Shown here: one piece after another, positions 3 through 16,238 of the stretch
How positions within the stretch are numbered: position 1 is the stretch's first letter
Layout of the letters: each line of letters opens with the position of its first letter
Origin: a virus
Reading direction: 5' to 3' (one strand)
Virus record (IMG/VR): IMGVR_UViG_3300030333_006292
Location: 6,908-70,907 of that record
Length of the DNA: 64,000 nt
Translations under genes and position numbers: made by a program
The notes under the pieces: model-generated
Database searches by the model: none
Told to the model about the DNA's origin: nothing
The model's input: only the letters and a program-made list of their open reading frames with translations

Positions 3-1115
3 GACATAAGAAACAAAGCTCAGGCTGTACAAAATGAAATTTCTGAGATGAAAGGAGAGGAAACGGTTGATCAGTTAATATCAATCGCTGAGTCACCATT
101 TCATGAACTTTCAGTTGCACTTTCCTCATCTGTAGAGGATAAGCCTGTGACAATGGGTAGTGGAGCTACAGAGTATGTAGAACATTTGGAAGAAAACCCT
201 TGTGACAATGTTGGTATAAGCAGTGGGTTTTACAGATTTGATACTGCGATTGGCGGGGGTTTTAGAAGAAAAGGCGTTGATTTAATTGGTGCTAGAGCAA
301 AGACAGGCAAGAGTATGTTTGCCGATAATGTGGCTATGCACGTTTCTTCAAATCTTGACATACCTGTACTAATACTAGATACTGAAATGTCAATAGAAGA
401 CCATTGGAATAGGATACTAGCAAACTTAAGCGGAGTTGATATAAATAAAATTTCAAGTGGAAAGTTTGCACAAGAGACTGCCGGAAAAGAAAAGGTCTAT
501 CAAGCTACAGAAAAATTGAATGACTTGCCTTTCTACCATATAAACATAGCTGGTAGGCAGTTCAAAGAAACACTTTCGATTATTAGAAGGTGGATTAAAA
601 AAGAGGTTGGGTATGATGAGAACGGAAGAACTAACGACTGCTTAGTAATATATGATTATCTCAAGTTGATGGATGCTTCTGACATAAACAGTAATATGGC
701 AGAGTATCAAGTTCTGGGTTTTCAAATTACAGAGCTAGTTAACTTCACGATCAAGCATGACATAGCCTGTTTAGCTTTTGTCCAGCTTAATAGAGATGGA
801 ATTACAAAAGAATCAACTGACGCCATAAGTGGTTCTGACAGGCTTGTATGGCTCTGTAGTAGTTTCACTATATTCAAGAATAAATCAGACGAAGAGATAG
901 CTGAAGACCAAGGGCAAACTGGCAACAAGAAGCTTGTCTGTGTTGAACAGAGACATGGAGCTGGGCTTGCTGATTACGACTATATTAACTTAACAATGAC
1001 TGGTAACTTAGGCAGGATTGAAGAAAATTCAACTAAGTTAGAAGCACAAAAAGAAAACAAGATAAATACTGATGGATTCGACAACGAAATACAAGACGAT
1101 GAAAAACCGTTTTAA
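3..1115 (+). CDS. DnaB-like replicative DNA helicase, 5' end outside window
   Basis: Likely hexameric RecA-fold helicase that unwinds the fork. Numbering from the first ATG at 48, residues 81-89 (GARAKTGKS) form the Walker A loop, IYDYLKLM at 201-208 is the Walker B-type strand, and FVQLNRD near 245-250 matches the DnaB QLNR motif. The frame stays open from base 3 to the ATG, so the true start and probably the N-terminal domain lie outside the window. The 3' end overlaps the primase gene, the usual helicase-primase pairing in phage replication operons. A Twinkle/RadA-type ATPase is a less likely alternative, given the adjacent primase. Confidence 0.87.
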   Translation, partial: DIRNKAQAVQNEISEMKGEETVDQLISIAESPFHELSVALSSSVEDKPVTMGSGATEYVEHLEENPCDNVGISSGFYRFDTAIGGGFRRKGVDLIGARAKTGKSMFADNVAMHVSSNLDIPVLILDTEMSIEDHWNRILANLSGVDINKISSGKFAQETAGKEKVYQATEKLNDLPFYHINIAGRQFKETLSIIRRWIKKEVGYDENGRTNDCLVIYDYLKLMDASDINSNMAEYQVLGFQITELVNFTIKHDIACLAFVQLNRDGITKESTDAISGSDRLVWLCSSFTIFKNKSDEEIAEDQGQTGNKKLVCVEQRHGAGLADYDYINLTMTGNLGRIEENSTKLEAQKENKINTDGFDNEIQDDEKPF

Positions 1116-2178
1116 TTTTACTGCAAAAGAAAAAATTGCAATAAATCGTGGATTGGTAGCAAGATATCCAGAGCTTATGGATGCTTTGGGTATAAAATAT
1201 ACTAGAACAAGTCAAGAGTGCATTCATATGGCCTGTCCTATGCATGAGGGTGCTGACAATCCAACTGGGTTTTCACTTACTGTAGATTTAGACCACAGGG
1301 CTTGTGGACTCTGGTACTGCTGGACTGCTAAAGAAGATTCAGAGTGCAATAACTACAAAAAAGACATGATAGGTCTTGTCTCTGGTGTTTTAGAAAAACA
1401 TGCAGGCAAGAAGGTTCCATTTCCAAAAGTATTAAAGTGGTGTATGGATTTTCTTAACTGTGAGGATTCTAGCAAGCTACAAAGCCTAGTTTCTAAAGCT
1501 GAAGCCCATAGACAAAACTTGCCGGAAGAAACTACGAAAAAACGAAAGACGTTAAACTATACTAGAAGTGAGGTCAGAAAAGCGCTCAAAAGGCCTGCCA
1601 AGTATTATTTAAGAAGAGGTTACAGCGCAGAGATATTAGATAAATTTGACGTTGGTGTTTGTGCAGACAGAACAAAACCAATGAGATCCAGAGTTGTAGT
1701 TCCTGTCTACGATGCCGATTTTAAGAGAGTAGTGGGCTGTGTTGGCAGATTACAGAATGAGGAATACGACGCGCATAACCCAAAGTGGAAAAATTCAAAG
1801 GGCTTTTCAAAAAGCGAGTATCTATATGGAGACTGGATTGCGAAAGACCATATTAGAAAAACCAAGACAATAGTGCTTGTTGAAGGGCAAGGGGACGTTT
1901 GGAGATTACACGAAGCGGGAATAGAGAATGCAGTAGGGCTATTTGGTTCAAAACTTAGCGATGCTCAGTCAAGAAGAATACAAACGTCAGGAGCTTTTAA
2001 CATTGTTGTCTTAACTGACAATGATGATGTTGGAAAAAAAGCAAAGCAAGAAATAGTAGACAAAATGGGCAGAAGTTTTAATATAATAACTCCTACATTT
2101 ACTACTAAAGACGTTGGTGAAATGACTGTAGATCAAATTAATAAGCACTTAAAACCGCAGCTAGAAGGTTACATATAA
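1072..2178 (+). CDS. DnaG-type DNA primase
   Basis: Makes RNA primers for lagging-strand synthesis. An N-terminal zinc-binding segment is visible (CPMH at residues 55-58, then C78 and C83), resembling the CHC2 finger of DnaG. A TOPRIM fold follows, with VEGQGD at 270-275 (catalytic Glu) and TDNDDVG at 315-321 (metal-binding Asp cluster). At 368 aa it is shorter than bacterial DnaG, which fits loss of the helicase-binding C-terminus. The start overlaps the helicase gene; a second in-frame ATG at 1099 is an equally good start and would leave a 17-base overlap. The stop overlaps the next start (TAATG). Confidence 0.9.
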   Translation: MDSTTKYKTMKNRFNFTAKEKIAINRGLVARYPELMDALGIKYTRTSQECIHMACPMHEGADNPTGFSLTVDLDHRACGLWYCWTAKEDSECNNYKKDMIGLVSGVLEKHAGKKVPFPKVLKWCMDFLNCEDSSKLQSLVSKAEAHRQNLPEETTKKRKTLNYTRSEVRKALKRPAKYYLRRGYSAEILDKFDVGVCADRTKPMRSRVVVPVYDADFKRVVGCVGRLQNEEYDAHNPKWKNSKGFSKSEYLYGDWIAKDHIRKTKTIVLVEGQGDVWRLHEAGIENAVGLFGSKLSDAQSRRIQTSGAFNIVVLTDNDDVGKKAKQEIVDKMGRSFNIITPTFTTKDVGEMTVDQINKHLKPQLEGYI

Positions 2179-2951: not shown

Positions 2952-3487
2952 TGGTAGAAATACCATTTACACAAGAGATGGTAGACTCTGCTAAGAAAAA
3001 AGCAAAGATTATGGGTTCTATCAATAACTCTATTTTAAAGGGTAGAGGAAATTTTGCTGGCTTTCTTGGGGAAGAGGCTGTTGCTTCTTATATAAAAGCA
3101 AACATTATAAGTTTTGACGAAGGTGAAAATAAGTACGGGCATGACCTCAATAAAAATGGAAAGAGAATAGAGGTAAAGACAAAAAGAAGAACCGTAAAGC
3201 CTAGACTAAATTATGATGTTTCTGTTGCAGCAACCAGCAAACATCAAGCAGACAAAAAGGGCTTAGACGTTTATATATTTACTAGTATCCAGTTTGATGG
3301 AAGTGAACCTAAAAAGATTTGGATCATTGGACAGAAAGACAGGGATGCTTACTTTAAAGAAGCTAGGTTTATCAAAAAAGGCGAACCAGAGGGGGATAAT
3401 GGTTTTATAGCCCGTATAGATATGTACAATATGGTAACCACAGAATTGGATGGTTTAGATGATAGTCTGTTATCACAGATCGAGTAG
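2930..3487 (+). CDS. PD-(D/E)XK nuclease-like protein
   Basis: Small protein with a likely PD-(D/E)XK nuclease core. In numbering from an ATG at 2924, D74 is followed by E83-V-K85, the spacing expected for the catalytic D...ExK, with acidic residues E50/E51 upstream. An ATG at 2930 is preferred because a GAGAGA ribosome binding site sits 6 bases upstream; it gives 185 aa. It lies between nucleotide metabolism and a RecB-like nuclease, so a role in phage DNA processing or host DNA breakdown is plausible. The substrate is unknown. Confidence 0.75.
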   Translation: MAEDKRLMVEIPFTQEMVDSAKKKAKIMGSINNSILKGRGNFAGFLGEEAVASYIKANIISFDEGENKYGHDLNKNGKRIEVKTKRRTVKPRLNYDVSVAATSKHQADKKGLDVYIFTSIQFDGSEPKKIWIIGQKDRDAYFKEARFIKKGEPEGDNGFIARIDMYNMVTTELDGLDDSLLSQIE

Positions 3488-4484
3488 TCTTGGAACTCTT
3501 GAGTTTTGCGAACAAAAGTATTTCCTTCAATACAATCTCAGCTTGAAGGACAAGACAAACAAAAAAGCTTTGATGGGTACTATAACCCATAAGGTTATGC
3601 AAACTCTTGGTGACAAAAAAGTTGCCATGAACAACAACCTAGATATTGTAGAAGACGAAGAGACCGGAAGGAATCTAACTCTAGATGAGTGCGATGATCT
3701 TAAGCTACTAAATGACATTGCGTTTGAATACTATGGCAAGGCATTTCCAGAAGTAGATCTTACAGAGGCAGACAGACGAACATGCTTGAAATGGGCAGAG
3801 AAAGCGGTGGCCTACAGAGATGGCTTTCTTGACCCAAGAAATCAAGATGTATTTGCAACAGAGCTTTTCTTTGACATCGAAATTAAAAAACCTTGGGCGA
3901 AGTACACTTACAAAGTTGGTAAAGAAAAAATAGACGGTTATCTCTCAATCAAAGGCACAGTAGACCTAATATTGAAGCATGAAGATAACTATTTTGAAAT
4001 ACTGGATTACAAAACAGGCAAAAGAATCAATTGGGCTACAGGCGAAGAGAAGACGCACGAGAAGTTGCAGAAAGATACGCAGCTCCTTCTTTACTATTAC
4101 GCTCTAAGAAATATGTATCCAGATGCGGAATTTTTTGTCAGCATTTACTACATCAATGATGGCGGTTTGTTTTCTATGGTCTTTGATGACGACGACTACA
4201 AAAAAGCTGAGAACATACTGAAGAAAAAATTTCAGTACATAAAAAAGCAAGAAAGACCAAAACTTTTGTCGAATGACAATCGTCACTGGAAATGTCAAAA
4301 ACTCTGTAAATTCAGCGAGCCTTACAAAGAAGGCGCCAAAAAAAGTCTTTGTCAGCATGTAAGAGACGAAATTCGTAAAAAAGGTGTCAATAGGGTTATT
4401 GAAGAAATGGGAGATGTCAGTAAAATTTCTGCTTACGGCGACGGTGGCGGCAGATTAGCTGATTCAGATAAGGATAAAAAATGA
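3459..4484 (+). CDS. RecB/Cas4-like PD-(D/E)XK exonuclease with probable Fe-S cluster
   Basis: Probable single-strand exonuclease of the RecB/Cas4/AddB nuclease type. Motifs in order: the SSSLGTLEFC opening (C17), GTITH at 40-44, GTVDLIL with D168, DYKTG with D182 and K184, and QLLLYYYAL near 207-214. One N-terminal cysteine (C17) plus three C-terminal ones (C278, C282, C297) match the layout of the 4Fe-4S cluster in Cas4 and AddB. The ATG at 3459 gives a 29-base overlap with the previous gene. No cas1/cas2 or CRISPR repeats are present, so a recombination or DNA-processing role is more likely than CRISPR adaptation. Confidence 0.87.
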   Translation: MIVCYHRSSSLGTLEFCEQKYFLQYNLSLKDKTNKKALMGTITHKVMQTLGDKKVAMNNNLDIVEDEETGRNLTLDECDDLKLLNDIAFEYYGKAFPEVDLTEADRRTCLKWAEKAVAYRDGFLDPRNQDVFATELFFDIEIKKPWAKYTYKVGKEKIDGYLSIKGTVDLILKHEDNYFEILDYKTGKRINWATGEEKTHEKLQKDTQLLLYYYALRNMYPDAEFFVSIYYINDGGLFSMVFDDDDYKKAENILKKKFQYIKKQERPKLLSNDNRHWKCQKLCKFSEPYKEGAKKSLCQHVRDEIRKKGVNRVIEEMGDVSKISAYGDGGGRLADSDKDKK

Positions 4485-6388
4485 GTTGGGTTCCACTTCA
4501 TCTACATACTCACTACAGTTTATTAGACGGGCTTTCCAAACCAGATCAGGTTGCAGACAGATGTTCTCAGCTTGGATACAGCGCTTGTGCAGTTACAGAT
4601 CACGGCACTATATCTGGAGCGGTTTCTTTTACGCAGGCTTGTAAAAATAAAAACATTAAACCAATACTTGGTTGCGAGTTTTATTTGAGCGCACAGTCTG
4701 CAACAATCCAGTCTACTGAAAATAGATCGTTGAGCCATCTATGCGTGCTTGCTAAAAACAAAGCCGGATGGAATCAACTTATAAAAGCTGTATCTAGAAG
4801 TAATGATGAAGATATTTTTTACCACAAACCTAGACTAGACTTAGACCTTCTAGGCGAATTTGTTGATGGTAATCTTATTGGTTTTAGCGGCCATCTTGGT
4901 AGTGACTTAGCTAATGTTATATTTGAAAGTCCTCGTGCTGCTTATAGAGCTTCTACAGAAGAGGAAGTAAAAAAATATATTGCTTCTGACTGGGATAGCC
5001 GAGCCTTGGAACTGGCTAACAGATATGCTGATATATTTGGAAAAGAAAACTTCTTCATAGAGATACAGTGTATAGATGAAGAAAATTCTCCTGCGTCAAG
5101 ACTAGTGGCTCAGGGGTTAAGATACATAGCGAAAAAGCATGGCTTTAAATCTGTAGCTACTGCTGATTCACACTATGTAGAAAAACAAGACGCTATTGAC
5201 CATACGATTCTTCTCTGTTCCGCAATGAAAACGCCATTGCGACAATTGAAGTCAAAGATAGAAAAGAATATTGAGGTTGGCTTTAGTGGGTTTATGAAGT
5301 CTAACAATTTTCATATCCCCTCTTTTGAAGAGATACAAAGCCTTCATAGGCCTCACGAAATACAAGCTACACATGAAATAGAAAGCATGTGTGAAGAATA
5401 TGATATACTTTCTAAACCGATGCTTCCTCAATTTAAATGTCCAGAAGAAGTTTCAGAAGAGCAGTATCTAAGACACTTATGCAGAGAGGGCTGGAAGAAT
5501 ATACTTAAACCTCTAGGAAAGATTTCTACACAAACTCAGTCTGATATTTACGCAGAGAGAATAAAAAAGGAACTTGAGGTAATAAGTAACGCGCATCTTT
5601 CAGGATACTTTTTAATTGTTAGAGATATAGTTCAGAGAGTTAAAGATAGTAGCTGGCTACCCGGACCGGGAAGAGGTTCCGCTGCTGGCAGTTTAATATC
5701 TTATCTCGTTGGTATAACTCAAGTAGATCCTATTGAATACGATTTGATTTTTGAGAGATTTTATAATGCAGGACGAAACACAGAAGACCATGTTTCATTA
5801 CCTGATATAGATATTGATGTACCTGCAACAAAGAGAGATGATGTAATTAAATATATTAGAGAAAAGTATGGGAGCAAGAATGTTGGCCAGATGGTGACGT
5901 TCGGTAGGCTTCAAGGAAGAAGCGCTCTCAAGGAAGTCTTAAGAATGAATGAGGCTTGCGGATTTGACGAGATGAATGTCATAACAAAGAGTCTTCCGCA
6001 TGAACATGAAGTTTCAGACCAGCTTTCAGAAATGGAAGATCCATCTGTCATTAAATGGACGTTGATGAATCAACCAGAAGCTCTGAGAGAGTATTGTAGG
6101 ATAGAAGATGACGGCAGACTTACTGGAGACTACGCAAAGCTCTTTGAGCAAGCTATGCGGCTTGAGGGTACGTTTAAGTCTCAGGGCAAGCACGCGGCTG
6201 GAGTTGTGATCTCGTCCCATAATTTGAACGACGTTTGCCCAATGGTCAGAGACAAAAAAGGCACAGAAAAAATAGCTGGCATGGAAATGAACGATTTAGA
6301 ATCAATGGGGCATGTCAAGTTCGACATATTAGGAATCTCTTTGTTGGATAAATTAATGGGAATAAGTGAGAGTTTAGAAGATGAATGA
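4481..6388 (+). CDS. DNA polymerase III alpha, N-terminal fragment (PHP + palm)
   Basis: First half of a split replicative polymerase. Residues 1-250 form a PHP domain (HLHTHYSLLDG at 7-17, VTDHG at 38-42, ATADSHYV at 226-233). The polymerase core starts near 370: PGPGRGSAAGS at 394-404, the catalytic PDIDID at 441-446, and VKFDILG with D615. The three expected metal-binding aspartates are therefore all present. The protein ends 20 residues after D615, where full-length alpha subunits continue into the fingers. That missing part is encoded at 7266-8828. No intein-like sequence is seen at the break. It starts in an ATGA overlap with the nuclease gene. Confidence 0.93.
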   Translation: MSWVPLHLHTHYSLLDGLSKPDQVADRCSQLGYSACAVTDHGTISGAVSFTQACKNKNIKPILGCEFYLSAQSATIQSTENRSLSHLCVLAKNKAGWNQLIKAVSRSNDEDIFYHKPRLDLDLLGEFVDGNLIGFSGHLGSDLANVIFESPRAAYRASTEEEVKKYIASDWDSRALELANRYADIFGKENFFIEIQCIDEENSPASRLVAQGLRYIAKKHGFKSVATADSHYVEKQDAIDHTILLCSAMKTPLRQLKSKIEKNIEVGFSGFMKSNNFHIPSFEEIQSLHRPHEIQATHEIESMCEEYDILSKPMLPQFKCPEEVSEEQYLRHLCREGWKNILKPLGKISTQTQSDIYAERIKKELEVISNAHLSGYFLIVRDIVQRVKDSSWLPGPGRGSAAGSLISYLVGITQVDPIEYDLIFERFYNAGRNTEDHVSLPDIDIDVPATKRDDVIKYIREKYGSKNVGQMVTFGRLQGRSALKEVLRMNEACGFDEMNVITKSLPHEHEVSDQLSEMEDPSVIKWTLMNQPEALREYCRIEDDGRLTGDYAKLFEQAMRLEGTFKSQGKHAAGVVISSHNLNDVCPMVRDKKGTEKIAGMEMNDLESMGHVKFDILGISLLDKLMGISESLEDE

Positions 6389-6605
6389 TGAAGAGTATAT
6401 CAAAAAAATAAAAATGCGTTTGAGCAGGGGTGGTTACATGTCATTTAGGGGAGTAACTATATGCCCAATTAAAAGAAATATGCCTAAGCAGATTGTATAT
6501 CAGGTACACTCTGATAACCCTAAAACAAGATTTAGTAAATTGTATAAAGACATTGATGAAGCAATACAGAAGTTTTTGCAGATTAAGAAAAAGGTGAGAA
6601 GATGA
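6381..6605 (+). CDS. 74-aa protein of unknown function inside the split polymerase locus
   Basis: Small basic protein lying between the two polymerase fragments, overlapping the first by 8 bases and the exonuclease by 4 (ATGA). It is rich in Lys and Arg, with a helical, charged C-terminus (EAIQKFLQIKKKVRR). There is no GIY-YIG, HNH or LAGLIDADG motif, so it does not look like a homing endonuclease remnant. Its position suggests a replisome accessory or DNA-binding role, which is inference only. Confidence 0.72.
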   Translation: MNDEEYIKKIKMRLSRGGYMSFRGVTICPIKRNMPKQIVYQVHSDNPKTRFSKLYKDIDEAIQKFLQIKKKVRR

Positions 6606-7285
6606 ATTACCGAGATATCATTGTATTTGATTTTGAAACAGGTTCAAGAAACCCATATAAAACGCAGCCAACTCAAATTGCTGCGGTAGCTATTCATGGT
6701 AGAAAGCTTACTATACAGCCGGGAGGGATATTCAATAGCGAGATCAGACCGATACTAGATGATGACAAAGCTATAGAAATGGGTTTAGATCCAGTTGAAG
6801 ACGAAGCTTTGGCGGTTACTCGAAAGACAAGAGAAGAGCTAGCAAAAGCTCCCCAACTTAAAACCGTCTGGAAGAAGTTTTCAAACTTTGTTAATAAATA
6901 TAACTTCAAGAAGACAAACTGGACTGCTCCTATACCTGCTGGTTACAACATCATTGGGTTTGACATGCCAATTGTAGAGCGTATGTGTAGTGAACACGGC
7001 CCTACCAACGCAAAAAATGGTAGACAGGGCCTATTCAACCCTATCTACAAAATAGATTTGATGGATACTGTATGGTTGTGGATGGAAAACAACGCAGATG
7101 TAAAGTCTTTGAGTATGGATTCTATGAGAGACCTTCTGGGTATGAGCAAAGAAAATGCTCATGATGCTAAGCAGGACGTTCTAGATACTGCTAATCTAAT
7201 GATAGCGTTCATGAAACTTCATAGAAGAGTAGCTCCTACAGTTAAATTTGAGAAAGCCTTTGCAGATGGAAACATCCACCTTTAA
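6602..7285 (+). CDS. DnaQ-like DEDDh 3'-5' exonuclease
   Basis: Probable proofreading exonuclease equivalent to the epsilon subunit. The DEDDh residues are visible: FDFE with D10 and E12, GFD with D121, and HDAKQD with H187 and D192. Length (227 aa) is typical. The start has a good AAGGTGAGA ribosome binding site and an ATGA overlap with the 74-aa gene. It sits between the two polymerase fragments, so proofreading activity may be co-assembled with the split alpha subunit. RNase T or oligoribonuclease activity would be the alternative within the same superfamily. Confidence 0.88.
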   Translation: MNYRDIIVFDFETGSRNPYKTQPTQIAAVAIHGRKLTIQPGGIFNSEIRPILDDDKAIEMGLDPVEDEALAVTRKTREELAKAPQLKTVWKKFSNFVNKYNFKKTNWTAPIPAGYNIIGFDMPIVERMCSEHGPTNAKNGRQGLFNPIYKIDLMDTVWLWMENNADVKSLSMDSMRDLLGMSKENAHDAKQDVLDTANLMIAFMKLHRRVAPTVKFEKAFADGNIHL

Positions 7286-8828
7286 TCCAATAAACCTACA
7301 GTTTGATAATGACGATGCTTGGGATCTTATATGCAACGGAAGAACCAAAGGTGTTTTTCAGCTAGAAAGCAGCTTAGGTAGATCTTGGGCTAAAAGAATA
7401 AAGCCAAGAAATATAGAAGATCTAGCAGCTTTAGTTTCTATAATAAGACCCGGATGTTTGAAAGCTATTGTTGATGGTAAATCAATGACTCAACACTTCT
7501 TAGACAGAAGAAATGGTCTGGAAGAAGTCGAGTATTTACATCCGTCACTTAAACCTATCCTTGAATCTACTCAGGGTGTCCTTGTGTACCAAGAGCAGTC
7601 TATGAAGATAGCTCAGCAGCTTGCTGGATTTGATCTTCAAGAAGCGGACAATCTCCGTAAAGCTATTGGCAAAAAGAAAGCTGACCTTATGGCTAAGGTC
7701 AAGAAGTCTTTCTTGGAAGGTTCTATTGAACAAGGCATTGTAGGTAAAGAAACCGCTGAAGAAATATTCAGTTGGATTGAAAAATCTAGCAGGTACGCTT
7801 TCAATAAATCTCACGCCGTTAGCTATGCCATTTGTGGTTACTGGAGCGCTTATGCAAAAGCCCACTACCCTTTGGAATTTTACAATCAGTATTTAAGATT
7901 TGCTCATGGAAAGCCAAACCCTCAGCAAGAAATTAAGGAGCTTGTCAGGGACGCAAGAGCATTGAACATCAATATTCATCCGCCCTCAATAAAATATCTT
8001 AATCCTAAAAATGAAATTCTTGAAAACAAGGTTCATTTTGGACTCAAAGATGTAAAATCAATAGGCGACAGACATATGAAGAAGCTCAAAGAGGAGCTTC
8101 CAAACATACAAGAGCAATCTGGAAAACATATTTCAGAGATGTCTTGGTATGAGTTCTTAGTGTACTGTGGAGATGCTCTGTACGGCCCACTTGTCATAGC
8201 TATGATTTCAGTAGGTATGCTGTCACATACTAAAAAATCCAGAACCGAAATGTTAGACAACTTTGATACTTGGCAAAAGCTGACATCAAAAGAAACAGAA
8301 TGGGCTAAAAAACATTGCGGCGAACATGATAACCTCATCGACTTACTAAAAGCCCTGTCGCCTACAAAAAAGATGGGTGGAGGATGTCATAACGAAGCGA
8401 GGTCAGAAGTAGTCAAGTCAATGATAATGATGCTTGAAAATCCTCCTTCGTCAATGGATGATGATCCTAGCTGGATCATAAATACAGAAGAGAACCTGCT
8501 TGGTGTAGCTATTAGCTATTCAAGAATTGAGTCTAGTGAGACTAGCATGGCAGACACCAAGTGTAGAGATGTCATAAATGGCAAAAAGGGGAAAATGCGG
8601 CTGGCCATCACCCTTAACGTTGTTAGGAAATGGATGACAAAGGCGAACAAAGAAATGGCCTTTATATCTGCTGAAGATGATACTGGAGAGATTGATAATA
8701 TAGCGATATTTAACGAGGACTGGGAGAACTATAAAAATATATTATATGAGGGTAATAACGTGCTTGTCTTCTGCGAGTCTTCTCAAAATAGAGATGGTAT
8801 TATCGTCTCTAAAGCCGTTGAAATTTGA
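7266..8828 (+). CDS. DNA polymerase III alpha, C-terminal fragment (fingers + OB fold)
   Basis: Second half of the split polymerase (520 aa). It opens with FDNDDAWDLICNGRTKGVFQ (residues 13-32), the start of the fingers domain in bacterial alpha. YQEQSMKIAQ (108-117), RKAIGKKK and AFNKSHAVSYA (178-188) are further fingers motifs. The region around 430-520 resembles the alpha OB fold (MAFISAEDDTGEIDN). The tau-binding tail is absent. The two halves total about 1155 aa, close to a complete alpha subunit, so this is a split and not a decayed copy. ATG 7266 is preferred over an upstream TTG at 7248; it overlaps the exonuclease stop. Confidence 0.92.
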   Translation: METSTFNPINLQFDNDDAWDLICNGRTKGVFQLESSLGRSWAKRIKPRNIEDLAALVSIIRPGCLKAIVDGKSMTQHFLDRRNGLEEVEYLHPSLKPILESTQGVLVYQEQSMKIAQQLAGFDLQEADNLRKAIGKKKADLMAKVKKSFLEGSIEQGIVGKETAEEIFSWIEKSSRYAFNKSHAVSYAICGYWSAYAKAHYPLEFYNQYLRFAHGKPNPQQEIKELVRDARALNINIHPPSIKYLNPKNEILENKVHFGLKDVKSIGDRHMKKLKEELPNIQEQSGKHISEMSWYEFLVYCGDALYGPLVIAMISVGMLSHTKKSRTEMLDNFDTWQKLTSKETEWAKKHCGEHDNLIDLLKALSPTKKMGGGCHNEARSEVVKSMIMMLENPPSSMDDDPSWIINTEENLLGVAISYSRIESSETSMADTKCRDVINGKKGKMRLAITLNVVRKWMTKANKEMAFISAEDDTGEIDNIAIFNEDWENYKNILYEGNNVLVFCESSQNRDGIIVSKAVEI

Positions 8829-8903: not shown

Positions 8904-9305
8904 ATGTCTAGTTCAATTTCAAACTATTGTCGTTTTATTGGAAGACTGGTCAAAGACCCAAAGCTTATTCAAGTTGAAGATACACACTTAACTAACTTTA
9001 CTTTGGCTATAAACGAATATCATAGATCTAAAGAAGATCAATCAGAAAAAGGTGAATTTGTAAAGAAGAAAACTGTAAACTATTTTGATTTCGAGGCTTG
9101 GGATACTGGCGCATTAGCCTTGCATAAATATTGTAAAAAGGGCGACATCATTGATGTAGTCACAACAGCTAGAAACAACAGCTGGACAGACAAAAAGGGC
9201 AATAAAAAGTTTCAAACAAAGTTCAGAGTAAAAGAATTCAAACTTTTTAATAATAACCCTTCATATCAGACTTCTGAATCAAATACAGAAAAAGATGAAG
9301 GATGA
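8904..9305 (+). CDS. ssb: single-stranded DNA-binding protein
   Basis: OB-fold SSB that coats single-stranded DNA at the phage fork. The N-terminal half reads like bacterial SSB: FIGRLVKDP, NFTLAIN, NYFDFEAWDTGALALHKYCKKGD, then the SWTDKKGNKK hairpin. The C-terminus is acidic (SNTEKDEG), as expected for the partner-binding tail, but lacks the bacterial DDDIPF ending. Length is 133 aa. It follows the polymerase locus after the only sizeable gap and overlaps the sigma factor start by 11 bases. Confidence 0.87.
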   Translation: MSSSISNYCRFIGRLVKDPKLIQVEDTHLTNFTLAINEYHRSKEDQSEKGEFVKKKTVNYFDFEAWDTGALALHKYCKKGDIIDVVTTARNNSWTDKKGNKKFQTKFRVKEFKLFNNNPSYQTSESNTEKDEG

Positions 9306-9786
9306 AACAAAACCATTAAATAAATCAGAGCTTGAAGAAGAACTTGTCTGCAAAAACTATGGACTAGTTGTTTCTCAGGCTCTTTCTTTTTCCAACGAGA
9401 ATTCCCAGTTTTCATTAGAAGACTATATTCAAGTTGGTCTTATAGGGCTTTTGAAGGCTATAAGAGAGTACAAAGAAGATAAGGCAAAGTTTTCTACATT
9501 TGCTACTGTCTGCATAAGAAATCATATGCTAAATCTTCTTAGAAGAACAAAAAACAAAAACTCAGTTATCTTTGACTCAGACTATCTAGCAAGCAGTCAA
9601 ATTGACAAAGAGGATTTTTTTGAGTATGTTCCAGACTATCTAAATGAAGAACATAAGTTTATAATCAAACTTAAGCTGCAAAATTATAATAATAGAGAGA
9701 TAAGAGAAATGATCTCATGCACGAAGAAGCAGCTAGAAGATAAAATGAAAGAGATAACAAAAGCTCTAAGAGGTTGCGGTCAGTGA
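9295..9786 (+). CDS. phage sigma-70-family RNA polymerase sigma factor
   Basis: Small sigma factor (163 aa) that would redirect host RNA polymerase. Residues about 18-85 match sigma region 2: EDYIQVGLIGLLKAIREY followed by KFSTFATVCIRNHMLNLLRR, covering core binding and -10 recognition/melting. A short C-terminal segment (KLKLQNYNNREIREMISC) could be a reduced region 4 helix-turn-helix. The size recalls T4 gp55-type late sigma factors, but I cannot assign it to that family. It is co-transcribed with the SSB and overlaps the first glycan gene. Confidence 0.85.
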   Translation: MKDETKPLNKSELEEELVCKNYGLVVSQALSFSNENSQFSLEDYIQVGLIGLLKAIREYKEDKAKFSTFATVCIRNHMLNLLRRTKNKNSVIFDSDYLASSQIDKEDFFEYVPDYLNEEHKFIIKLKLQNYNNREIREMISCTKKQLEDKMKEITKALRGCGQ

Positions 9787-11414
9787 GAAAGAAGAGAATA
9801 CTGTTTTGCGGTGAGGCCACATATCTTAATACAGGATATGCCACCTACAATAGAGAAGTAATAAAAAGACTTTTTGCTACTGGTAAATATGATATAGCAG
9901 AATTTGCTTCCTATGGTTCAAACAGTGACCCTAGAAGAAAGCAAATCCCTTGGACTTTCTATGGCAATATGCCAGATAAAAACAATGAGGAAGAAGTTAG
10001 GGATTATGAGTCCGTACCTACGAACCAGTTTGGCGAATGGAAGTTTGAGTCTGTGCTTTTAGACTTTAAGCCAGATGTTGTATGTGATATACGAGACTTT
10101 TGGATGATGGATTTCCAGCAAAGATCTCCCTTTAGAAGAATGTTTCATTGGGCGATTATGCCAACCGTAGATGCTCATCCTCAAAATGAACAGTGGCTGG
10201 AAACTTACTGTGATGCGGATGCGGTATTTAGCTACTCTGATTGGGGAGGAGAGGTAATAAAAGAAGAAACAAATAACAACGCTAAATATATAAAAACAGC
10301 GCCTCCTTCTGCCGACAGTGCATATGTTCCCGTAGAAGACAAAATCAAACACAAAGAAAAGATGGGTTTCTCTGCTGACTCTTTGATCATTGGTACGGTC
10401 ATGAGAAACCAAAAAAGAAAACTCTTTCCTGATTTATTCAAGACCTTCAGAATGTTCTTAGATAAGTCTCAAAACAAAGACGTTTTCTTATACTGCCATA
10501 CCAGTTACCCAGATTTAGGCTGGGATATTCCTAAACTTATACATAAATATGGGCTTTCGAGCAAAGTATTATTTACATATGTTTGCCAAAACTGCGGTCA
10601 TTGTTTTCCAATGTTCTTCTCTGACGCAAGAACAAAATGTCCAAAATGTAAATCAAGTTCAGCCGGACTTTCAAACGTGCAACAGGGCGTAAGCTATGAA
10701 TTTCTAGCTGACATAATGAATTGCTTTGATCTATACATCCAGTACGCAAACAGCGAGGGGTTTGGTTTACCGCAGGTTGAAGCAGCTGCTTGTGGTGTAC
10801 CAGTCATGAGTGTTGACTATTCTGCAATGAGTAGTGTAATCAGAAAACTTGGAGGAACCCCTTTAAAATTAGCCTCGGTATACAATGAAGTCGAAACAGG
10901 TTGTGATAGAGCGGTTCCAGACAATGACTACGCTTCCGACCAAATTGTAAAGTTCTTTGAAATGTCAGAAAAAGAGAGGCTCGATTTAGGAGAACAAACA
11001 AGAAAGAATTTTGAAAAGTATTACCAATGGGACGATACTGCCAAGATATGGGAAGAACACTTTGACTCTATAGAAATAAGACCAGAAGAGGAAACTTGGT
11101 CATCTCCTCCAAGACTACATTCCCCTGCAACTTCAATTCCAGCAGAGATAAGTGACAGAGATTTTATTAAATGGTTAATTGTCAACGTGTTAGGCGAACC
11201 AGAAAAATTAAACACACTATTTGAGTCTAGAATGATAAGAGACTTGAACTACGGCTACTTCAAACAAGGCACTGGAAATTCATACTTAAATGAAGACTCT
11301 TTGCAATTTGAAAAGCCGGACTTTGTACCTTTTGAAAAAGAACAGGCGTACAATATTATGGCTGGGTTGTGCCATCATAGAAATGAATGGGAGCAAAGGA
11401 GGATCTCTGGATGA
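9783..11414 (+). CDS. GT4-like glycosyltransferase with inserted zinc ribbon
   Basis: GT-B-fold glycosyltransferase. The C-terminal donor-binding half has NSEGFGLPQVEAAACGVPV at about residues 324-342, the GT4 E-x7-E region. Before it, at about 268-289, a C-x2-C...C-x2-C zinc ribbon (CQNC and CPKC) is inserted between the two Rossmann halves, an unusual addition. Start: an AAGAGG ribosome binding site at 9768-9773 is 9 bases before GTG 9783, which forms a GTGA overlap with the sigma factor stop; a TTG at 9774 would touch that site. It has a long C-terminal extension of about 120 aa. First gene of the glycan island. Confidence 0.85.
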   Translation: MRKKRILFCGEATYLNTGYATYNREVIKRLFATGKYDIAEFASYGSNSDPRRKQIPWTFYGNMPDKNNEEEVRDYESVPTNQFGEWKFESVLLDFKPDVVCDIRDFWMMDFQQRSPFRRMFHWAIMPTVDAHPQNEQWLETYCDADAVFSYSDWGGEVIKEETNNNAKYIKTAPPSADSAYVPVEDKIKHKEKMGFSADSLIIGTVMRNQKRKLFPDLFKTFRMFLDKSQNKDVFLYCHTSYPDLGWDIPKLIHKYGLSSKVLFTYVCQNCGHCFPMFFSDARTKCPKCKSSSAGLSNVQQGVSYEFLADIMNCFDLYIQYANSEGFGLPQVEAAACGVPVMSVDYSAMSSVIRKLGGTPLKLASVYNEVETGCDRAVPDNDYASDQIVKFFEMSEKERLDLGEQTRKNFEKYYQWDDTAKIWEEHFDSIEIRPEEETWSSPPRLHSPATSIPAEISDRDFIKWLIVNVLGEPEKLNTLFESRMIRDLNYGYFKQGTGNSYLNEDSLQFEKPDFVPFEKEQAYNIMAGLCHHRNEWEQRRISG

Positions 11415-12538
11415 AAGTTCTTTATATAGGACACTACAGAGAGGGTTCTGGATGGGGACAGGCAGCTATTGATTACATATTAGCTATGGACTCCGTTGGT
11501 ATTGATGTTGTACCTAGAGCCGTAAAGCTAAATCAAAGACAGCCGCAACTCCCAGAGAGAATTCTTGAACTAGAGAGCAAGGAATCTCTAGGATGCGATA
11601 TTTGTATTCAGCATGTATTGCCAACAATGCTTGACTTCAATAGCCGTTTTAAGAAAAACATAGCTCTTTACGCTACGGAAACTAGCAACTTTAAGCAGTC
11701 AAGCTGGGCTAGAAAAATAAACACTATGGACGAAGCTTGGGTTATCAATAATCAAATGAAGCAAGCCTCTCTAGACAGTGGTGTTGACGTACCAATAAAA
11801 ATAATTCCTCATGCCAGTGACTTCTCCAAATTTGAGATGCGGCACAAAAAGATAGAAATACCTAACTCTGAAGGCAACTTTATTTTCTATACCATAGCCG
11901 ACTTTAACAGAAGAAAAAACATAGAAGCTATCGTAAGATCTTTTCACTCAGAGTTCAGCAAAAATGAACCTGTTTCCCTTTTAATAAAGACAGGTAGCGA
12001 AGGGATGAATTCAGACACTTGCGCCGCAAGTATGCAATCCATATGTAACGAGATTAAAGAAGAGCTTAAGATATTTCCAGATACAGACTCTTACAAGGAA
12101 GATTTGATAATCACAGACTACCTTTCTGAGAAAGATATAGAAAGAATACATCAAACTTGCGATTGTTTTATCACCTCTAGTTATGGTGAAGCTTGGTGTA
12201 TACCGGCGTTTGATGCTATGGGCTTTGGTAATACCCCTATCTGTAGCAATACTGGAGGTATGGCAGACTTCTTAAAAGAAGGTGGTGGTGTATTAGTCTC
12301 TGGCAGAATGGAGCCTGTCACCGGAATGCTCAACACAATTCCTGATATGTTTACCGCTAAAGAAAATTGGTTTTCAATTGACGAAAACGAATTAAAGGCT
12401 TCTATGAGAAACATTTATGAAATGCACAAGAATTCCGATCCTTCATATTCAGAAATGAAAAGACAAGGATTGAAATCCGCCTATGAATACTCCCACGAAA
12501 AGATAGGGACGCTAATAAAGGAGGCTTTGAATGTTTAA
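11411..12538 (+). CDS. GT4-like glycosyltransferase
   Basis: GT-B glycosyltransferase (375 aa), likely retaining. The N-terminal segment VLYIGHYREGSGWGQAA is a Rossmann-type opening. FYTIADFNRRKNIEAIVRSF starts the second domain, and SSYGEAWCIPAFDAMGFG (near 255-272) is the donor-binding E-x7-E region. The start is ATG 11411: AAAGGAGG lies 8 bases upstream and the ATG forms an ATGA overlap with the previous stop. Sugar and acceptor cannot be predicted. Confidence 0.85.
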   Translation: MKVLYIGHYREGSGWGQAAIDYILAMDSVGIDVVPRAVKLNQRQPQLPERILELESKESLGCDICIQHVLPTMLDFNSRFKKNIALYATETSNFKQSSWARKINTMDEAWVINNQMKQASLDSGVDVPIKIIPHASDFSKFEMRHKKIEIPNSEGNFIFYTIADFNRRKNIEAIVRSFHSEFSKNEPVSLLIKTGSEGMNSDTCAASMQSICNEIKEELKIFPDTDSYKEDLIITDYLSEKDIERIHQTCDCFITSSYGEAWCIPAFDAMGFGNTPICSNTGGMADFLKEGGGVLVSGRMEPVTGMLNTIPDMFTAKENWFSIDENELKASMRNIYEMHKNSDPSYSEMKRQGLKSAYEYSHEKIGTLIKEALNV

Positions 12539-13547
12539 CCCTGTAGCTTCAATAACAAGAGCAGCAACAAGAAAGTTCAACGAACCTTTAAACATACTGA
12601 CATTCCCCACGCACGAAAGATACGAAACATTACTATGTAAAACCGGACACAACTTTTATGCGTATAGAGCTGAAGGCATAAAAGATTGGAATCCAAAGAA
12701 TGGTGAATTGCCAGAAAACTACATACTCTTAGATCCAGAGCTTGAAGAAAGACAAATACCAAATTATGTAGACTTTGATCTTGTTTTATCACAGAACAAA
12801 TTTGGTCAATTTCAAGTTGCTCACAGGTTGGCTCAAAAAATGCACTTGCCATTGGTTAGTCTTGAACACACGCTGCCTGTTCCAGAATGGGGCGACGACA
12901 TTATGCAGGCGACGAGAAGCATGAGGGGCGATATAAATGTTTTCATATCATCCTTCAGCATAGACAGTTGGGGTTGGCAACCATTCAATGACACTACGGT
13001 TATAACACATGGTGTTGACTCAAGCTTATTCAGGCCTGACGATTCCATAGAAAGAGAAAACCATGCCTTGTCCGTTGTTAATGACTGGATTAACAGGGAT
13101 TGGTGTTGTGGCTTTAATATATGGAGAAGAATCGCTGATAAATTTCCTACTAAAGTTGTTGGTGATACTCCCGGCCTTTCGGAATCCGCAAAGAGTATAG
13201 AAGATCTTGTAAGAGAGTATCAATCTAGTAGAATTTTTATAAACACATCGACGATATCTCCTGTGCCAACGGCTCTCTTAGAAGCAATGGCTTGTGGATG
13301 TGCTGTCGTGACAACAGCAACCTGCATGATACCTGAGATAGTAGAGAATGGCGTAAACGGTTTCATCAGTAATGATGAAGAAGAGCTTAAACATTATATA
13401 GTCGATCTTCTTAACAACGAAGATTTGGCAAAAGAGATGGGACAAAAGGCTAGACAAACTATAGTAAATAAGTTCTCCCAAGAAGGCTTTATAGACAAAT
13501 GGGAAAATATATTTTATCAAGCAACAAAAGTTTGCTTTAGAGGTTAA
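12531..13547 (+). CDS. GT4-like glycosyltransferase
   Basis: GT-B glycosyltransferase (338 aa). The C-terminal domain includes PTALLEAMACGCAVVTT (around 245-262) and EIVENGVNGFI, both typical of GT4 nucleotide-sugar binding. The first Glu of the E-x7-E motif is not obvious, so donor binding may differ from its neighbours. AAAGGAGG lies just upstream of ATG 12531, which overlaps the preceding stop by 8 bases. Confidence 0.82.
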   Translation: MFNPVASITRAATRKFNEPLNILTFPTHERYETLLCKTGHNFYAYRAEGIKDWNPKNGELPENYILLDPELEERQIPNYVDFDLVLSQNKFGQFQVAHRLAQKMHLPLVSLEHTLPVPEWGDDIMQATRSMRGDINVFISSFSIDSWGWQPFNDTTVITHGVDSSLFRPDDSIERENHALSVVNDWINRDWCCGFNIWRRIADKFPTKVVGDTPGLSESAKSIEDLVREYQSSRIFINTSTISPVPTALLEAMACGCAVVTTATCMIPEIVENGVNGFISNDEEELKHYIVDLLNNEDLAKEMGQKARQTIVNKFSQEGFIDKWENIFYQATKVCFRG

Positions 13548-13549
13548 CA

Positions 13550-14014
13550 ATGAAAATAAACATAACAGTTGGCGCAAAACAGCCCTTGAGCGGCTATATA
13601 AACGTTGACCCAATAACAAAATTTGACGGCCTTGCTGTAGACATAAGAGATCTGGATCCAGTGGTCAATGATGCAGAATGCACCGAGCTGATTGCTGTAG
13701 ATGTTTTAGATTATCTGAAAAAACAAGATGCAATATCTGTAGTGCAATCTTGGATTAAAAAGCTAAGGCATAATGGAAAAATAGTAATTGGTATAACGGA
13801 CGCTTATGAAGTATGCAAGTTGTTTTACCAGCAAAGAATAAGCCTTGATGATTTCAACTACTTGCTGCATGGGGCGCTTTCTGACGCTTGGGACATAAAA
13901 TTGAACCATATGACTATGGAAATCGTTGAAGAGCTAATGAAATCAAACGGCTTGAAAATAACAAAGAGAAGACTAGACGATTACACATCCATAGTAGAAG
14001 GAGTTAGACCTTAA
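13550..14014 (+). CDS. SAM methyltransferase-like protein
   Basis: Short class I methyltransferase-like protein (154 aa). The opening INITVGAKQPLSGYINVDP and the later KKLRHNGKIVIGITD follow the pattern of small phage and bacterial methyltransferases whose SAM loop has a K/G-rich start and an acidic strand (NVDP). The glycine-rich loop is weak, so it could be a non-catalytic homologue. It follows three glycosyltransferases and could methylate a sugar. Confidence 0.62.
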   Translation: MKINITVGAKQPLSGYINVDPITKFDGLAVDIRDLDPVVNDAECTELIAVDVLDYLKKQDAISVVQSWIKKLRHNGKIVIGITDAYEVCKLFYQQRISLDDFNYLLHGALSDAWDIKLNHMTMEIVEELMKSNGLKITKRRLDDYTSIVEGVRP

Positions 14015-14015
14015 A

Positions 14016-14783
14016 ATGGGCGATCTTACAACAAATTGTACAAAATGTATTTTTTCAGTTAAAGACGGCAAAACTCAGACGGGATGCGAACTCGAGAGGA
14101 TAGAAAAATACAGAGAAAATGGCGTCGTAGTAATTGAAGCTGAAGACTTAGAGGATAACGAATTTTATGTTATACAGTCTTGGTGTTCAGCTTACAGAGA
14201 AGAAGACTGGATTGAAGATCGTCTAGATCCAAAATCAGATGTCTTGGAGGAAATGAAATCCCCCATGGGCTTTATTGTCATTGTTGACGACGAAAATTCA
14301 GCAGATAAATTGGCTATTACTTTAAACAGTATTCTTGAAAATGTTGAAGAACCTTCATTTATTGTGATAGCAAATAACTCTTCCAATGACTACGTTGAAA
14401 TTATTAACAGTGCAGTTGAATACTTTTCTGACAAAGATGATGTAATATACAAGGTAACAGACATCAAAGAAGAAAACTGTGACGATCACAGAGTTGTAGA
14501 CATATCTTTTAACAATTTTAGAAATGGATTTTACACTATTTTAAAATCTGGGAATAAAATACCGCTAAAAATTGAGGAGGTTTTGAATCATACTATAATT
14601 AGTGAAGTTAAGAAGCCAGCTTTTATTGAAGGTTGGGATGGCATAAATGGAGAAACTGTACAGTGTACTGTACATAAATTCATGAATGGAAATTCAGGAC
14701 AGCTACTAAGTGACAAGGCTAAGGCAGCGCAAGACGCTAACGACAATAAGGTTTTTTATACATGGAAAGAGTTACAGTCTTAA
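14016..14783 (+). CDS. Cys-rich N-terminal protein with possible GT-A-like domain
   Basis: Function not recognised (255 aa). The N-terminus has a compact cysteine set (CTKC, then C at about 23), suggesting metal binding. From about residue 85, GFIVIVDDENSADKLAITLNSI resembles the first strand and helix of a GT-A glycosyltransferase, but a DxD metal motif is not evident. AAGGAG lies before ATG 14016. The 3' end overlaps the following GT2 gene by 22 bases, so the two are likely translated together and may work as a pair. Confidence 0.7.
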   Translation: MGDLTTNCTKCIFSVKDGKTQTGCELERIEKYRENGVVVIEAEDLEDNEFYVIQSWCSAYREEDWIEDRLDPKSDVLEEMKSPMGFIVIVDDENSADKLAITLNSILENVEEPSFIVIANNSSNDYVEIINSAVEYFSDKDDVIYKVTDIKEENCDDHRVVDISFNNFRNGFYTILKSGNKIPLKIEEVLNHTIISEVKKPAFIEGWDGINGETVQCTVHKFMNGNSGQLLSDKAKAAQDANDNKVFYTWKELQS

Positions 14784-15541
14784 TAGCCACTTATAATGAC
14801 GAAGATTATATACAGTCTTCTGTCAAGAGTGCATTTGACCAAAATTATAAAGGCCCGCTAACAATATGCGTAGTTAGCGATGGCTCTACAGATAATACAT
14901 ATGCCATAGCTAAGAAGTTTTTTAAATCACCCATAGAAGAAAAAGATTGTCTATATGAAGAGGGGCTTGGCAAAAACAAAAATATTAAATATATATTGAC
15001 TGAAAAAATAAATGGTGGTCCTAGTGACGCTAGAAATCATGGAATATCTAAAACTATACTAGAAACTGATATATATGCAATACTCGATGCCGATGACGAG
15101 ATGTATCCAAATAAAATTTCAGAATGTGTTTCAGTAATGTCAAAAGACATGAATTCTATTGGCGTTGTTTATGCTGATTATGACACATATCACACAGAGA
15201 CTAAAAAGAAAATAAGAGAATTTAAAGAACCATTTTCAAGAAGAAGGCTTGTTCAAGAATGTATAGTCCATAGTGGTTCACTAATAAATGCAAGAGCTTT
15301 GTCTAGTGTAGAAGAAGAAACAGGTTACTATGATAAAGAAATGAGAACCTGCGAAGACTACGATTTATGGATGAGAATAAGTGAAAAATACATGATATCA
15401 CATGTTCCAAAATCTTTGACGTTGGTGCGAGTAACAGGTGACAATTCCAGCTTCATAGTTAATCAAGATGTTTGGCAGAAAAACTGGAAGAGGGTTATGA
15501 CTAAAATGCAAGATAGGTTAAATGGGTCAAGTCTACAATAG
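14762..15541 (+). CDS. GT2-family glycosyltransferase
   Basis: Inverting GT-A glycosyltransferase (259 aa). Family features are clear: VTVLIATYNDEDYIQSSVKS at residues 4-23, VSDGSTDNT at 38-46, GGPSDARNHGI at 85-95, and the metal-binding DADD at 109-112. CEDYDLWMRISE near 198 is the acceptor-side ED motif. No membrane segment is visible, so it acts in the cytoplasm. It overlaps both flanking genes. Confidence 0.9.
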   Translation: MERVTVLIATYNDEDYIQSSVKSAFDQNYKGPLTICVVSDGSTDNTYAIAKKFFKSPIEEKDCLYEEGLGKNKNIKYILTEKINGGPSDARNHGISKTILETDIYAILDADDEMYPNKISECVSVMSKDMNSIGVVYADYDTYHTETKKKIREFKEPFSRRRLVQECIVHSGSLINARALSSVEEETGYYDKEMRTCEDYDLWMRISEKYMISHVPKSLTLVRVTGDNSSFIVNQDVWQKNWKRVMTKMQDRLNGSSLQ

Positions 15542-16238
15542 GTTTACAACCTCTACTAAAAATAGAGCCGCAGGTAAACATAAAGACAGACCTTTAACAG
15601 TCATAATACCTGCGGCAGGAATGGGCCATAGAATGAAATCTTATGGCCCTAAATGCTTGCTGCCAGCAAACATCAAAGAAACAATATTAGACAAAAGTAT
15701 AAAAACTATAAAGAAAGTATATAACTACTGTGAAATAATATTAGTTGTAGGTTTTGAAGCAGAAAAAATAACACAGACTTTACCAAAAGAAATAAGAATC
15801 GTAGAAAATCAAATTTATGAAAAGACGAGTGTTTCTGAGAGTGTTAGGTTAGCAATAAATAACTCTGTATATAATGATATACTTATAATATACGGAGACT
15901 TGATATTTAATATTAATACAATAAATGAGTTAACAGAGCATAGTTCTTGCGTAGTTGTTGACTCAAAGAGCAGGTTTAAAGCAGAGGAAATAGGTGTGAC
16001 AATTGTCGATGGTAAGGTTACAAACTTTGCTTATGGACTAGAAAATAAATGGTCACACATAGCCTATTTGACTGGGAACGAGTCTTTGGAATTTCAAAGG
16101 TTATGCTCAGATAAAAAGAAAAACAAAATGTACCCTTTTGAAGTTTTCAATATAATGTTAAGTCATGGTTTTGACCTATCTGCTATTGAACCTAAAGGTA
16201 TGAAAATAAAAGAAATAGACTCTTTGAAAGATTTATAA
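15522..16238 (+). CDS. nucleotidyltransferase (sugar- or choline-phosphate type)
   Basis: Activates a phosphorylated small molecule with an NTP. The N-terminal VIIPAAGMGHRM (about 27-38) is the nucleotide-binding loop, followed by GPKCLLPA, and IIYGDLIF (about 126-133) carries the metal-binding Asp. The layout is closest to MobA/LicC-type NTP transferases. Substrate is unknown: sugar-1-phosphate or phosphocholine are both possible. It may supply an activated donor to neighbouring transferases. The stop overlaps the next small gene (TAATG). Confidence 0.82.
   Translation: MGQVYNRFTTSTKNRAAGKHKDRPLTVIIPAAGMGHRMKSYGPKCLLPANIKETILDKSIKTIKKVYNYCEIILVVGFEAEKITQTLPKEIRIVENQIYEKTSVSESVRLAINNSVYNDILIIYGDLIFNINTINELTEHSSCVVVDSKSRFKAEEIGVTIVDGKVTNFAYGLENKWSHIAYLTGNESLEFQRLCSDKKKNKMYPFEVFNIMLSHGFDLSAIEPKGMKIKEIDSLKDL

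What the first reader, a model, noticed from the sequence alone, without database searches (positions are those of the whole stretch)
4481..8828. DNA polymerase III alpha split between palm and fingers, with a DnaQ-like exonuclease in the gap
Seen: the first fragment has the PHP domain and all three likely catalytic aspartates (D444, D446, D615) and stops 20 residues later. The second starts with the GRTKGVFQLES fingers motif and runs through an OB fold. Together they are about as long as a whole alpha subunit. Known: PolC carries an exonuclease inside PHP, and cyanobacterial DnaE is split with inteins, but neither matches this arrangement. Inference: the halves assemble without an intein, perhaps aided by the proteins encoded between them.
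Basis: partly seen in the sequence, partly recalled or inferred. Interest (0 to 1): 0.9.

Follow-up and report, generated by a model that had tools for sequence, protein, structure and literature searches.

The report
Phage DNA polymerase in two pieces
A large group of mostly uncultured marine and freshwater phages makes its only detectable DNA-copying enzyme as two separate proteins, cut between the two parts that form the active site and with a proofreading-enzyme gene sitting in the gap, and it has kept this layout since one ancient break.

Summary
A DnaE-type Pol III alpha is encoded as alphaN (4481-6388; PHP, palm, all three catalytic Asp) and alphaC (7266-8828; fingers, HhH, OB). Between them lie a 74-aa gene and a DEDDh exonuclease gene, all overlapping. 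The break lies in the palm-fingers linker and costs no residues: D615 to GRTKGVFQLES spans 45 residues counting the new start Met, against 44 in 22 contiguous alphas. The order alphaN-exonuclease-alphaC recurs in 127 distinct sequences (48 clusters at 90% aa). On a tree the split forms are one side of a 100%-supported branch. All four genes are under purifying selection. In the window's record and 20 large relatives (92-164 kb) it is the only polymerase found. The gap ranges from 0.66 to 6.9 kb and often holds unrelated genes, and no intron or intein was found at this junction. The halves must therefore be separate proteins; that they assemble is inferred, not shown. Similar but different splits are already reported (PHP|rest in actinophages; a minimal split alpha in jumbo phages). 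I call it a new variant of a known kind, unusual for its site, depth and apparent sole-replicase status. The 74-aa protein has no recognised relative.

The parts
4481..6388 (+). alphaN: PHP domain plus palm of a DnaE-type Pol III alpha subunit, with all three catalytic Asp (D444, D446, D615)
   Evidence: Pfam PHP 6.6e-39 and DNA_pol3_alpha 2.3e-71; aligns to Taq Pol III alpha to residue 626; triad 26/26; dN/dS median 0.038
6381..6605 (+). X74: 74-aa conserved protein of unknown family, predicted alpha-beta4-alpha, probable accessory replication protein
   Evidence: no Pfam or PHROG match above cut-off; AF2 pLDDT 89.6; no significant PDB or BFVD fold match; dN/dS 0.113
6602..7285 (+). EXO: DnaQ-like DEDDh 3'-5' exonuclease (D10, E12, D121, H187, D192)
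   Evidence: Pfam RNase_T 2.3e-12, PHROG 'DNA polymerase exonuclease subunit' 1.3e-21; five active-site residues invariant 24/24; dN/dS 0.013
7266..8828 (+). alphaC: fingers, HhH and OB part of Pol III alpha, starting in the palm-fingers linker
   Evidence: Pfam DNA_pol3_finger 2.4e-47; residue 11 aligns to Taq 648; AF2 pLDDT 90, best PDB matches are Pol III alpha; dN/dS 0.045
3459..4484 (+). PD-(D/E)XK (Cas4/Dna2-like) nuclease immediately upstream, 4-nt overlap with alphaN, same gene cluster
   Evidence: Pfam PDDEXK_1 3.2e-20; synteny in relatives
8904..9305 (+). SSB downstream in the same replication cluster
   Evidence: Pfam SSB 3.4e-13; synteny
48..2178 (+). DnaB-like helicase (48-1115) and TOPRIM primase (1072-2178) of the same cluster
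   Evidence: Pfam and PHROG

Best explanation
This is the catalytic subunit of the phage's own replicative DNA polymerase (C family, DnaE type), made as two separately translated polypeptides, alphaN (PHP + palm) and alphaC (fingers + HhH + OB). They associate non-covalently at the palm-fingers interface to rebuild the active site: alphaN supplies the three metal-binding Asp, alphaC the fingers that bind nucleotide and duplex. Overlapping start and stop codons couple translation of alphaN, X74, EXO and alphaC so the parts are made together. EXO supplies proofreading in trans; X74 is probably a small accessory or assembly subunit. The break arose once, in the linker, in the ancestor of this clade. 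Afterwards the gap became a landing site for other genes and mobile elements. Shown: the split, its exact site, its conservation, one change of state on the tree, selection on all parts, absence of another polymerase in large contigs. Inferred: assembly, activity, the roles of X74 and EXO, translational coupling.
For: Domains and invariant catalytic residues. No residue lost at the break: 45 residues from D615 to the G of GRTKGVFQLES counting the initiator Met, against 44 in all 22 contiguous alphas measured. 166 split loci with EXO in the gap, and 81 contiguous alphas with no EXO homologue in the fetched stretch; 127 distinct sequences, 48 clusters at 90% aa. Split is one side of a branch, SH-aLRT 100, one change of state. 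Median dN/dS 0.013-0.113 for the four genes. Exactly one palm domain and no family A or B polymerase in the window's 92-kb record and 20 large relatives up to 164 kb. Overlaps of 4, 8, 4 and 20 nt. Gap 663-6856 nt, too long and too variable for one translation product. alphaC modelled alone is a confident fold (pLDDT 90, pTM 0.81) whose only stretch below pLDDT 50 is residues 1-8, the free linker end.
Against: No complex was predicted and no activity is known. The large contigs are not certified complete, so a polymerase elsewhere cannot be fully excluded. No beta clamp (PF02767) was found in them and only weak Q-motifs occur in the parts, so how processivity is achieved is open. No isolate of this clade was found in the phage collection.
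Confidence: 0.85

Rival explanations
1. The halves are rejoined: by RNA splicing (group I/II intron, trans-splicing), translational bypass, or protein trans-splicing through a split intein.
For: Inteins do invade this polymerase in relatives: in-frame inteins after RPG in alphaC of L043, L055 and L132, and a split intein with an endonuclease gene between its halves at FNK|SH in L050.
Against: No Rfam intron match in 5800-7800; no intein blocks at the alphaN end or alphaC start in 26 aligned loci; both junctions lie inside overlapping, selected genes; the gap ranges from 0.66 to 6.9 kb and can hold full metabolic genes.
Confidence: 0.04
2. A four-protein core: X74 and EXO are structural parts that physically bridge or stabilise the two halves.
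For: EXO stays inside the gap in all 166 loci of the main clade and X74 lies in the gap in 88 of 142 loci by direct similarity; all are encoded together and selected.
Against: Basal lineage L196 has other genes in the gap, with only a weak exonuclease match about 10 kb upstream; X74 sits downstream of alphaC in the L042/L062 clade; gene order does not prove contact.
Confidence: 0.2
3. The split enzyme is not the replicase: the host Pol III copies the phage genome and the split enzyme has an accessory role (repair, Okazaki gap filling).
For: No phage clamp detected; a minimal split Pol III alpha in jumbo phages was suggested to cooperate with a family B enzyme (PMC7824862).
Against: Here it is full size, sits between helicase/primase and SSB, and no other polymerase was found.
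Confidence: 0.08
4. Decayed or misassembled gene: a frameshift or assembly error in an ordinary continuous alpha gene.
For: Broken genes are common in metagenome contigs (general knowledge).
Against: Same break with intact ORFs in 127 distinct sequences; dN/dS about 0.04 in both halves; catalytic residues invariant.
Confidence: 0.01

Closest known systems
Bacterial DnaE-type DNA polymerase III alpha (E. coli, Thermus aquaticus, M. tuberculosis; PDB 5FKU, 2HPI, 7PU7)
   Same: Domain order PHP-palm-fingers-HhH-OB, catalytic triad, linker length, total length 1155 against 1160 aa in E. coli
   Different: Two polypeptides instead of one; an exonuclease gene lies in the gap; no clamp motif of the usual kind recognised
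Minimal split Pol III alpha of group 2.2 jumbo phages (PMC7824862)
   Same: A C-family polymerase encoded by two genes and thought to reassemble
   Different: That one is a minimal core without other Pol III domains, is encoded by distant genes, is split into NTP-binding and Mg/template-binding parts, and accompanies a family B polymerase; here it is full length, in one gene cluster, split after the third Asp, with no other polymerase found
Two-gene DnaE-like alpha of actinophages (Microbacterium cluster EF, PMC7302621; phages Ajin, Potty, Onyinye)
   Same: alpha in two adjacent genes, sometimes with a small gene between
   Different: Split after PHP (about 320-370 aa + 750-770 aa) with palm and fingers still on one chain; Ajin, Potty and Onyinye fall outside the split clade on the tree
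Cyanobacterial split-intein DnaE
   Same: DnaE encoded by two genes
   Different: Joined by a split intein inside the fingers; no intein here at the palm-fingers break (site of the cyanobacterial intein from general knowledge)
Fractured phage genes with split intein and homing endonuclease (e.g. MIJ3 PolB, PMC6892783)
   Same: A replication gene in two pieces with a gene between; one relative, L050, has this arrangement inside alphaC
   Different: At the main break there is no intein and the usual intervening gene is an exonuclease, not a homing endonuclease

Membership tests
C-family DNA polymerase (Pol III alpha, DnaE type) | PHP + palm nucleotidyltransferase with three catalytic Asp | tested here: met
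   Pfam; D444, D446, D615 invariant 26/26
C-family DNA polymerase (Pol III alpha, DnaE type) | fingers, HhH and OB after the palm | tested here: met
   Pfam finger 2.4e-47; fold match to 7PU7/2HPI over the whole chain, E 1e-22 to 1e-20
C-family DNA polymerase (Pol III alpha, DnaE type) | palm and fingers on one polypeptide | tested here: not met
   separate ORFs in all split loci; membership by descent stands, the single-chain state does not
PolC | exonuclease domain inside PHP, OB at the N-terminus | tested here: not met
   domain order and PHP without an inserted exonuclease; PolC only a weak PDB match
Split-intein DnaE / fractured gene | intein halves at the break | tested here: not met
   no intein blocks in the alphaN tail or alphaC head of 26 loci
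Group I/II intron-interrupted gene | ribozyme between exons | tested here: not met
   no Rfam intron hit in the gap region; not proof against divergent introns
DnaQ/epsilon proofreading exonuclease (EXO) | DEDDh active site | tested here: met
   D10 E12 D121 H187 D192 invariant 24/24; RNase_T
DnaQ/epsilon proofreading exonuclease (EXO) | C-terminal tail binding alpha PHP, clamp motif | tested here: inconclusive
   only about 35 residues follow the last active-site Asp; no clear clamp motif; binding not testable here
Theta (HolE)-type epsilon partner (X74) | recognisable family membership | tested here: not met
   no Pfam or PHROG match above cut-off and no significant fold match; a theta-like role is not excluded
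Minimal split Pol III alpha of jumbo phages | no PHP, distant genes, with PolB | tested here: not met
   PHP present, one gene cluster, no PolB in the window's record or 20 large relatives

The most novel reading that the evidence does not exclude
A replicative DNA polymerase whose active site is built from two proteins (catalytic Asp on one, fingers on the other) and whose core is an obligate four-protein complex with the 74-aa protein and the exonuclease, i.e. a subunit-assembled C-family replicase that may be opened, exchanged or regulated at the palm-fingers joint.
Probability: 0.25. Interest if true: 0.8.

Novelty: new variant of a known kind. Interest (0 to 1): 0.62.

Why it matters
Replicative polymerases move the fingers against the palm during synthesis, yet here the two are separate proteins in what looks like the phage's sole replicase, and this has lasted through deep divergence (alphaN down to 37% identity). 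It offers a natural two-piece C-family polymerase for studying assembly and domain motion, a large group of uncultured phages recognisable by one gene order, and a locus where gene splitting, inteins and homing endonucleases can be followed over time.

Tried and rejected
Intron in the gap: no Rfam hit, and none in L050, L060, L062. Intein at the break: none in aligned tails and heads. X74 as remnant of an AP2-type homing endonuclease or as a theta homologue: no Pfam, PDB or BFVD support; weak Whirly/PUR-like fold hits (E 1.5-3) are not usable. Same split among isolates: N and C searches list at most about 35% identity; the split isolates examined break at other places. The EXO search hits only Bacteroides phages (26%), where the neighbour in DAC19 is a terminase, not a polymerase. 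More relatives of the basal L196 lineage in IMG/VR: none found. Papers: no description of a palm-fingers split of Pol III alpha was found in the held library, but most subscription journals are missing from it.

Full report
What is there. The region encodes, on the + strand and with each gene overlapping the next, a PD-(D/E)XK nuclease (3459-4484), alphaN (4481-6388), a 74-aa protein X74 (6381-6605), a DnaQ-like exonuclease EXO (6602-7285) and alphaC (7266-8828). SSB (8904-9305) follows; DnaB-like helicase and TOPRIM primase genes lie upstream. The window is part of a 92-kb IMG/VR virus record. alphaN has PHP (6.6e-39) and DNA_pol3_alpha (2.3e-71); alphaC has DNA_pol3_finger (2.4e-47); EXO has RNase_T (2.3e-12).

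Where the break is. alphaN aligns to Taq Pol III alpha up to residue 626 and alphaC from residue 648. The break is in the linker just after the third catalytic Asp. From that Asp to the fingers motif GRTKGVFQLES there are 45 residues in the window if the two proteins are laid end to end, including the new initiator Met; all 22 contiguous alphas in which both motifs were found have 44. So in the window nothing was lost. In other members the ends have drifted: 15-27 residues after D615 in alphaN, 12-53 before W19 in alphaC.

It is conserved and old. Searches of IMG/VR with each half and with an alignment, and of bacterial/archaeal assemblies, gave 166 loci with both halves in separate ORFs and EXO between them. 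The same analysis found 81 contiguous, mostly bacterial, alphas with no EXO homologue in the fetched stretch. Counting distinct sequences, including those of a later search, there are 127, in 48 clusters at 90% amino-acid identity; the distance from alphaN stop to alphaC start is 663-6856 nt, median 907, above 1200 nt in 42. In a 71-row maximum-likelihood tree the split forms are one side of a branch with SH-aLRT 100 and one change of state. The tree is a quick search with midpoint drawing, so single origin is supported rather than proved. In close pairs the median dN/dS is 0.038 (alphaN), 0.113 (X74), 0.013 (EXO) and 0.045 (alphaC). The catalytic triad is invariant in 26 of 26 rows and the five DEDDh residues of EXO in 24 of 24.

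It looks like the phage's only polymerase. In the window's record and 20 large relatives (92-164 kb) there is exactly one palm domain each and no family A or B polymerase. A 22nd record, the Lokiarchaeota assembly behind L196, has one such palm gene too, plus family B polymerases on other contigs, as expected of an archaeal assembly. No bacterial-type beta clamp was found in any. None of these virus records is certified complete, so absence is suggestive only.

How it most likely works. The two chains must be separate proteins: they are in different frames with overlapping neighbours, no intron was recognised in the gap, no intein sequence lies at either end in 26 aligned loci, and in L179 and L185 full-length metabolic genes (a glmS-like gene; aldehyde dehydrogenase- and aminotransferase-like genes, named by inspection) lie between them. 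alphaC modelled alone with 26 aligned sequences is confident (pLDDT 90, pTM 0.81), with only residues 1-8 below pLDDT 50, and matches Pol III alpha structures over its whole length. Non-covalent assembly at the palm-fingers interface, proofreading by EXO in trans, and translational coupling are inferences from these facts and from established knowledge of Pol III.

What the gap genes say. EXO stays in the gap in the whole main clade, but the deepest split lineage (L196, a contig binned as Lokiarchaeota) has two other genes there and only a weak exonuclease match about 10 kb upstream. X74 usually precedes EXO, but in the L042/L062 clade a homologue sits just after alphaC. So neither gene has to lie between the halves, although both may be subunits. 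X74 is predicted as alpha-beta4-alpha with good confidence (pLDDT 89.6) but has no significant sequence or fold match. The PHP domain keeps its nine presumed metal ligands in 13 of 26 rows and has lost them, often with about 100 residues, in the others, so PHP chemistry is not essential to this enzyme family.

What is known. Splits of phage C-family polymerases at other positions are recorded: a minimal, distantly encoded two-part alpha in jumbo phages that also have PolB (PMC7824862), and two-gene DnaE-like alphas in Microbacterium phages (PMC7302621). In the Microbacterium and Mycobacterium phages I examined the cut is after PHP. I found no report of a cut between palm and fingers with an exonuclease gene in the gap, within a library that lacks most subscription journals. 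Hence 'new variant of a known kind'.

Noticed in passing
L050:11515-14340: In this relative alphaC is itself broken at FNK|SH by a split intein (CLDPTTIVETQDG... / ...GIVTSN) with a DUF559/NUMOD3 endonuclease gene between the halves: a fractured gene inside an already split polymerase, a few residues from the cyanobacterial DnaE intein site (site from general knowledge).
   Followed up: partly
L043:11624-13975, L055:10494-12860, L132:7908-10301: In-frame inteins inserted after RPG at alphaC residue ~63 in three lineages; Pfam finds the splicing domain in L055 (below cut-off) and L132, and an HNH domain in L055.
   Followed up: partly
L062:7271-10400, L060:7895-10746, L290:4738-6828: alphaN is broken again just before the catalytic DxD; in L060 and L062 an endonuclease-like gene (LAGLIDADG by Pfam in L062) lies between, in L290 nothing. 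The second piece carries a conserved ~85-aa N-terminal extension, giving a three-piece alpha.
   Followed up: partly
L329, L330, L339: Distant phage contigs also break before DxD; L330 and L339 have an N-terminal extension on the next piece, and L329 and L339 also carry an intein-like break in the fingers. The extension may be an insert found in some contiguous phage DnaE, e.g. Gordonia phage RedWattleHog.
   Followed up: partly
window 4481-6388 and alignment A1: PHP metal ligands complete in 13 of 26 relatives and lost in the rest, often with about 100 residues of PHP deleted.
   Followed up: partly
gaps of L015, L041, L087, L107, L127, L074, L079, L042, L185, L179: The gap between the halves is an insertion hotspot: TylF-like methyltransferase, weak sulfotransferase-like match, and by inspection HNH-like, glycosyltransferase, sugar epimerase/dehydrogenase, GIY-YIG-like and glmS genes; a DNA/RNA non-specific nuclease was confirmed in L062.
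   Followed up: partly
window 9774-16238: A run of glycosyltransferase-like and sugar nucleotide genes directly downstream of the replication cluster.
   Followed up: no
window 38545-50634 (-): A single 4029-aa ORF on the minus strand, not examined.
   Followed up: no
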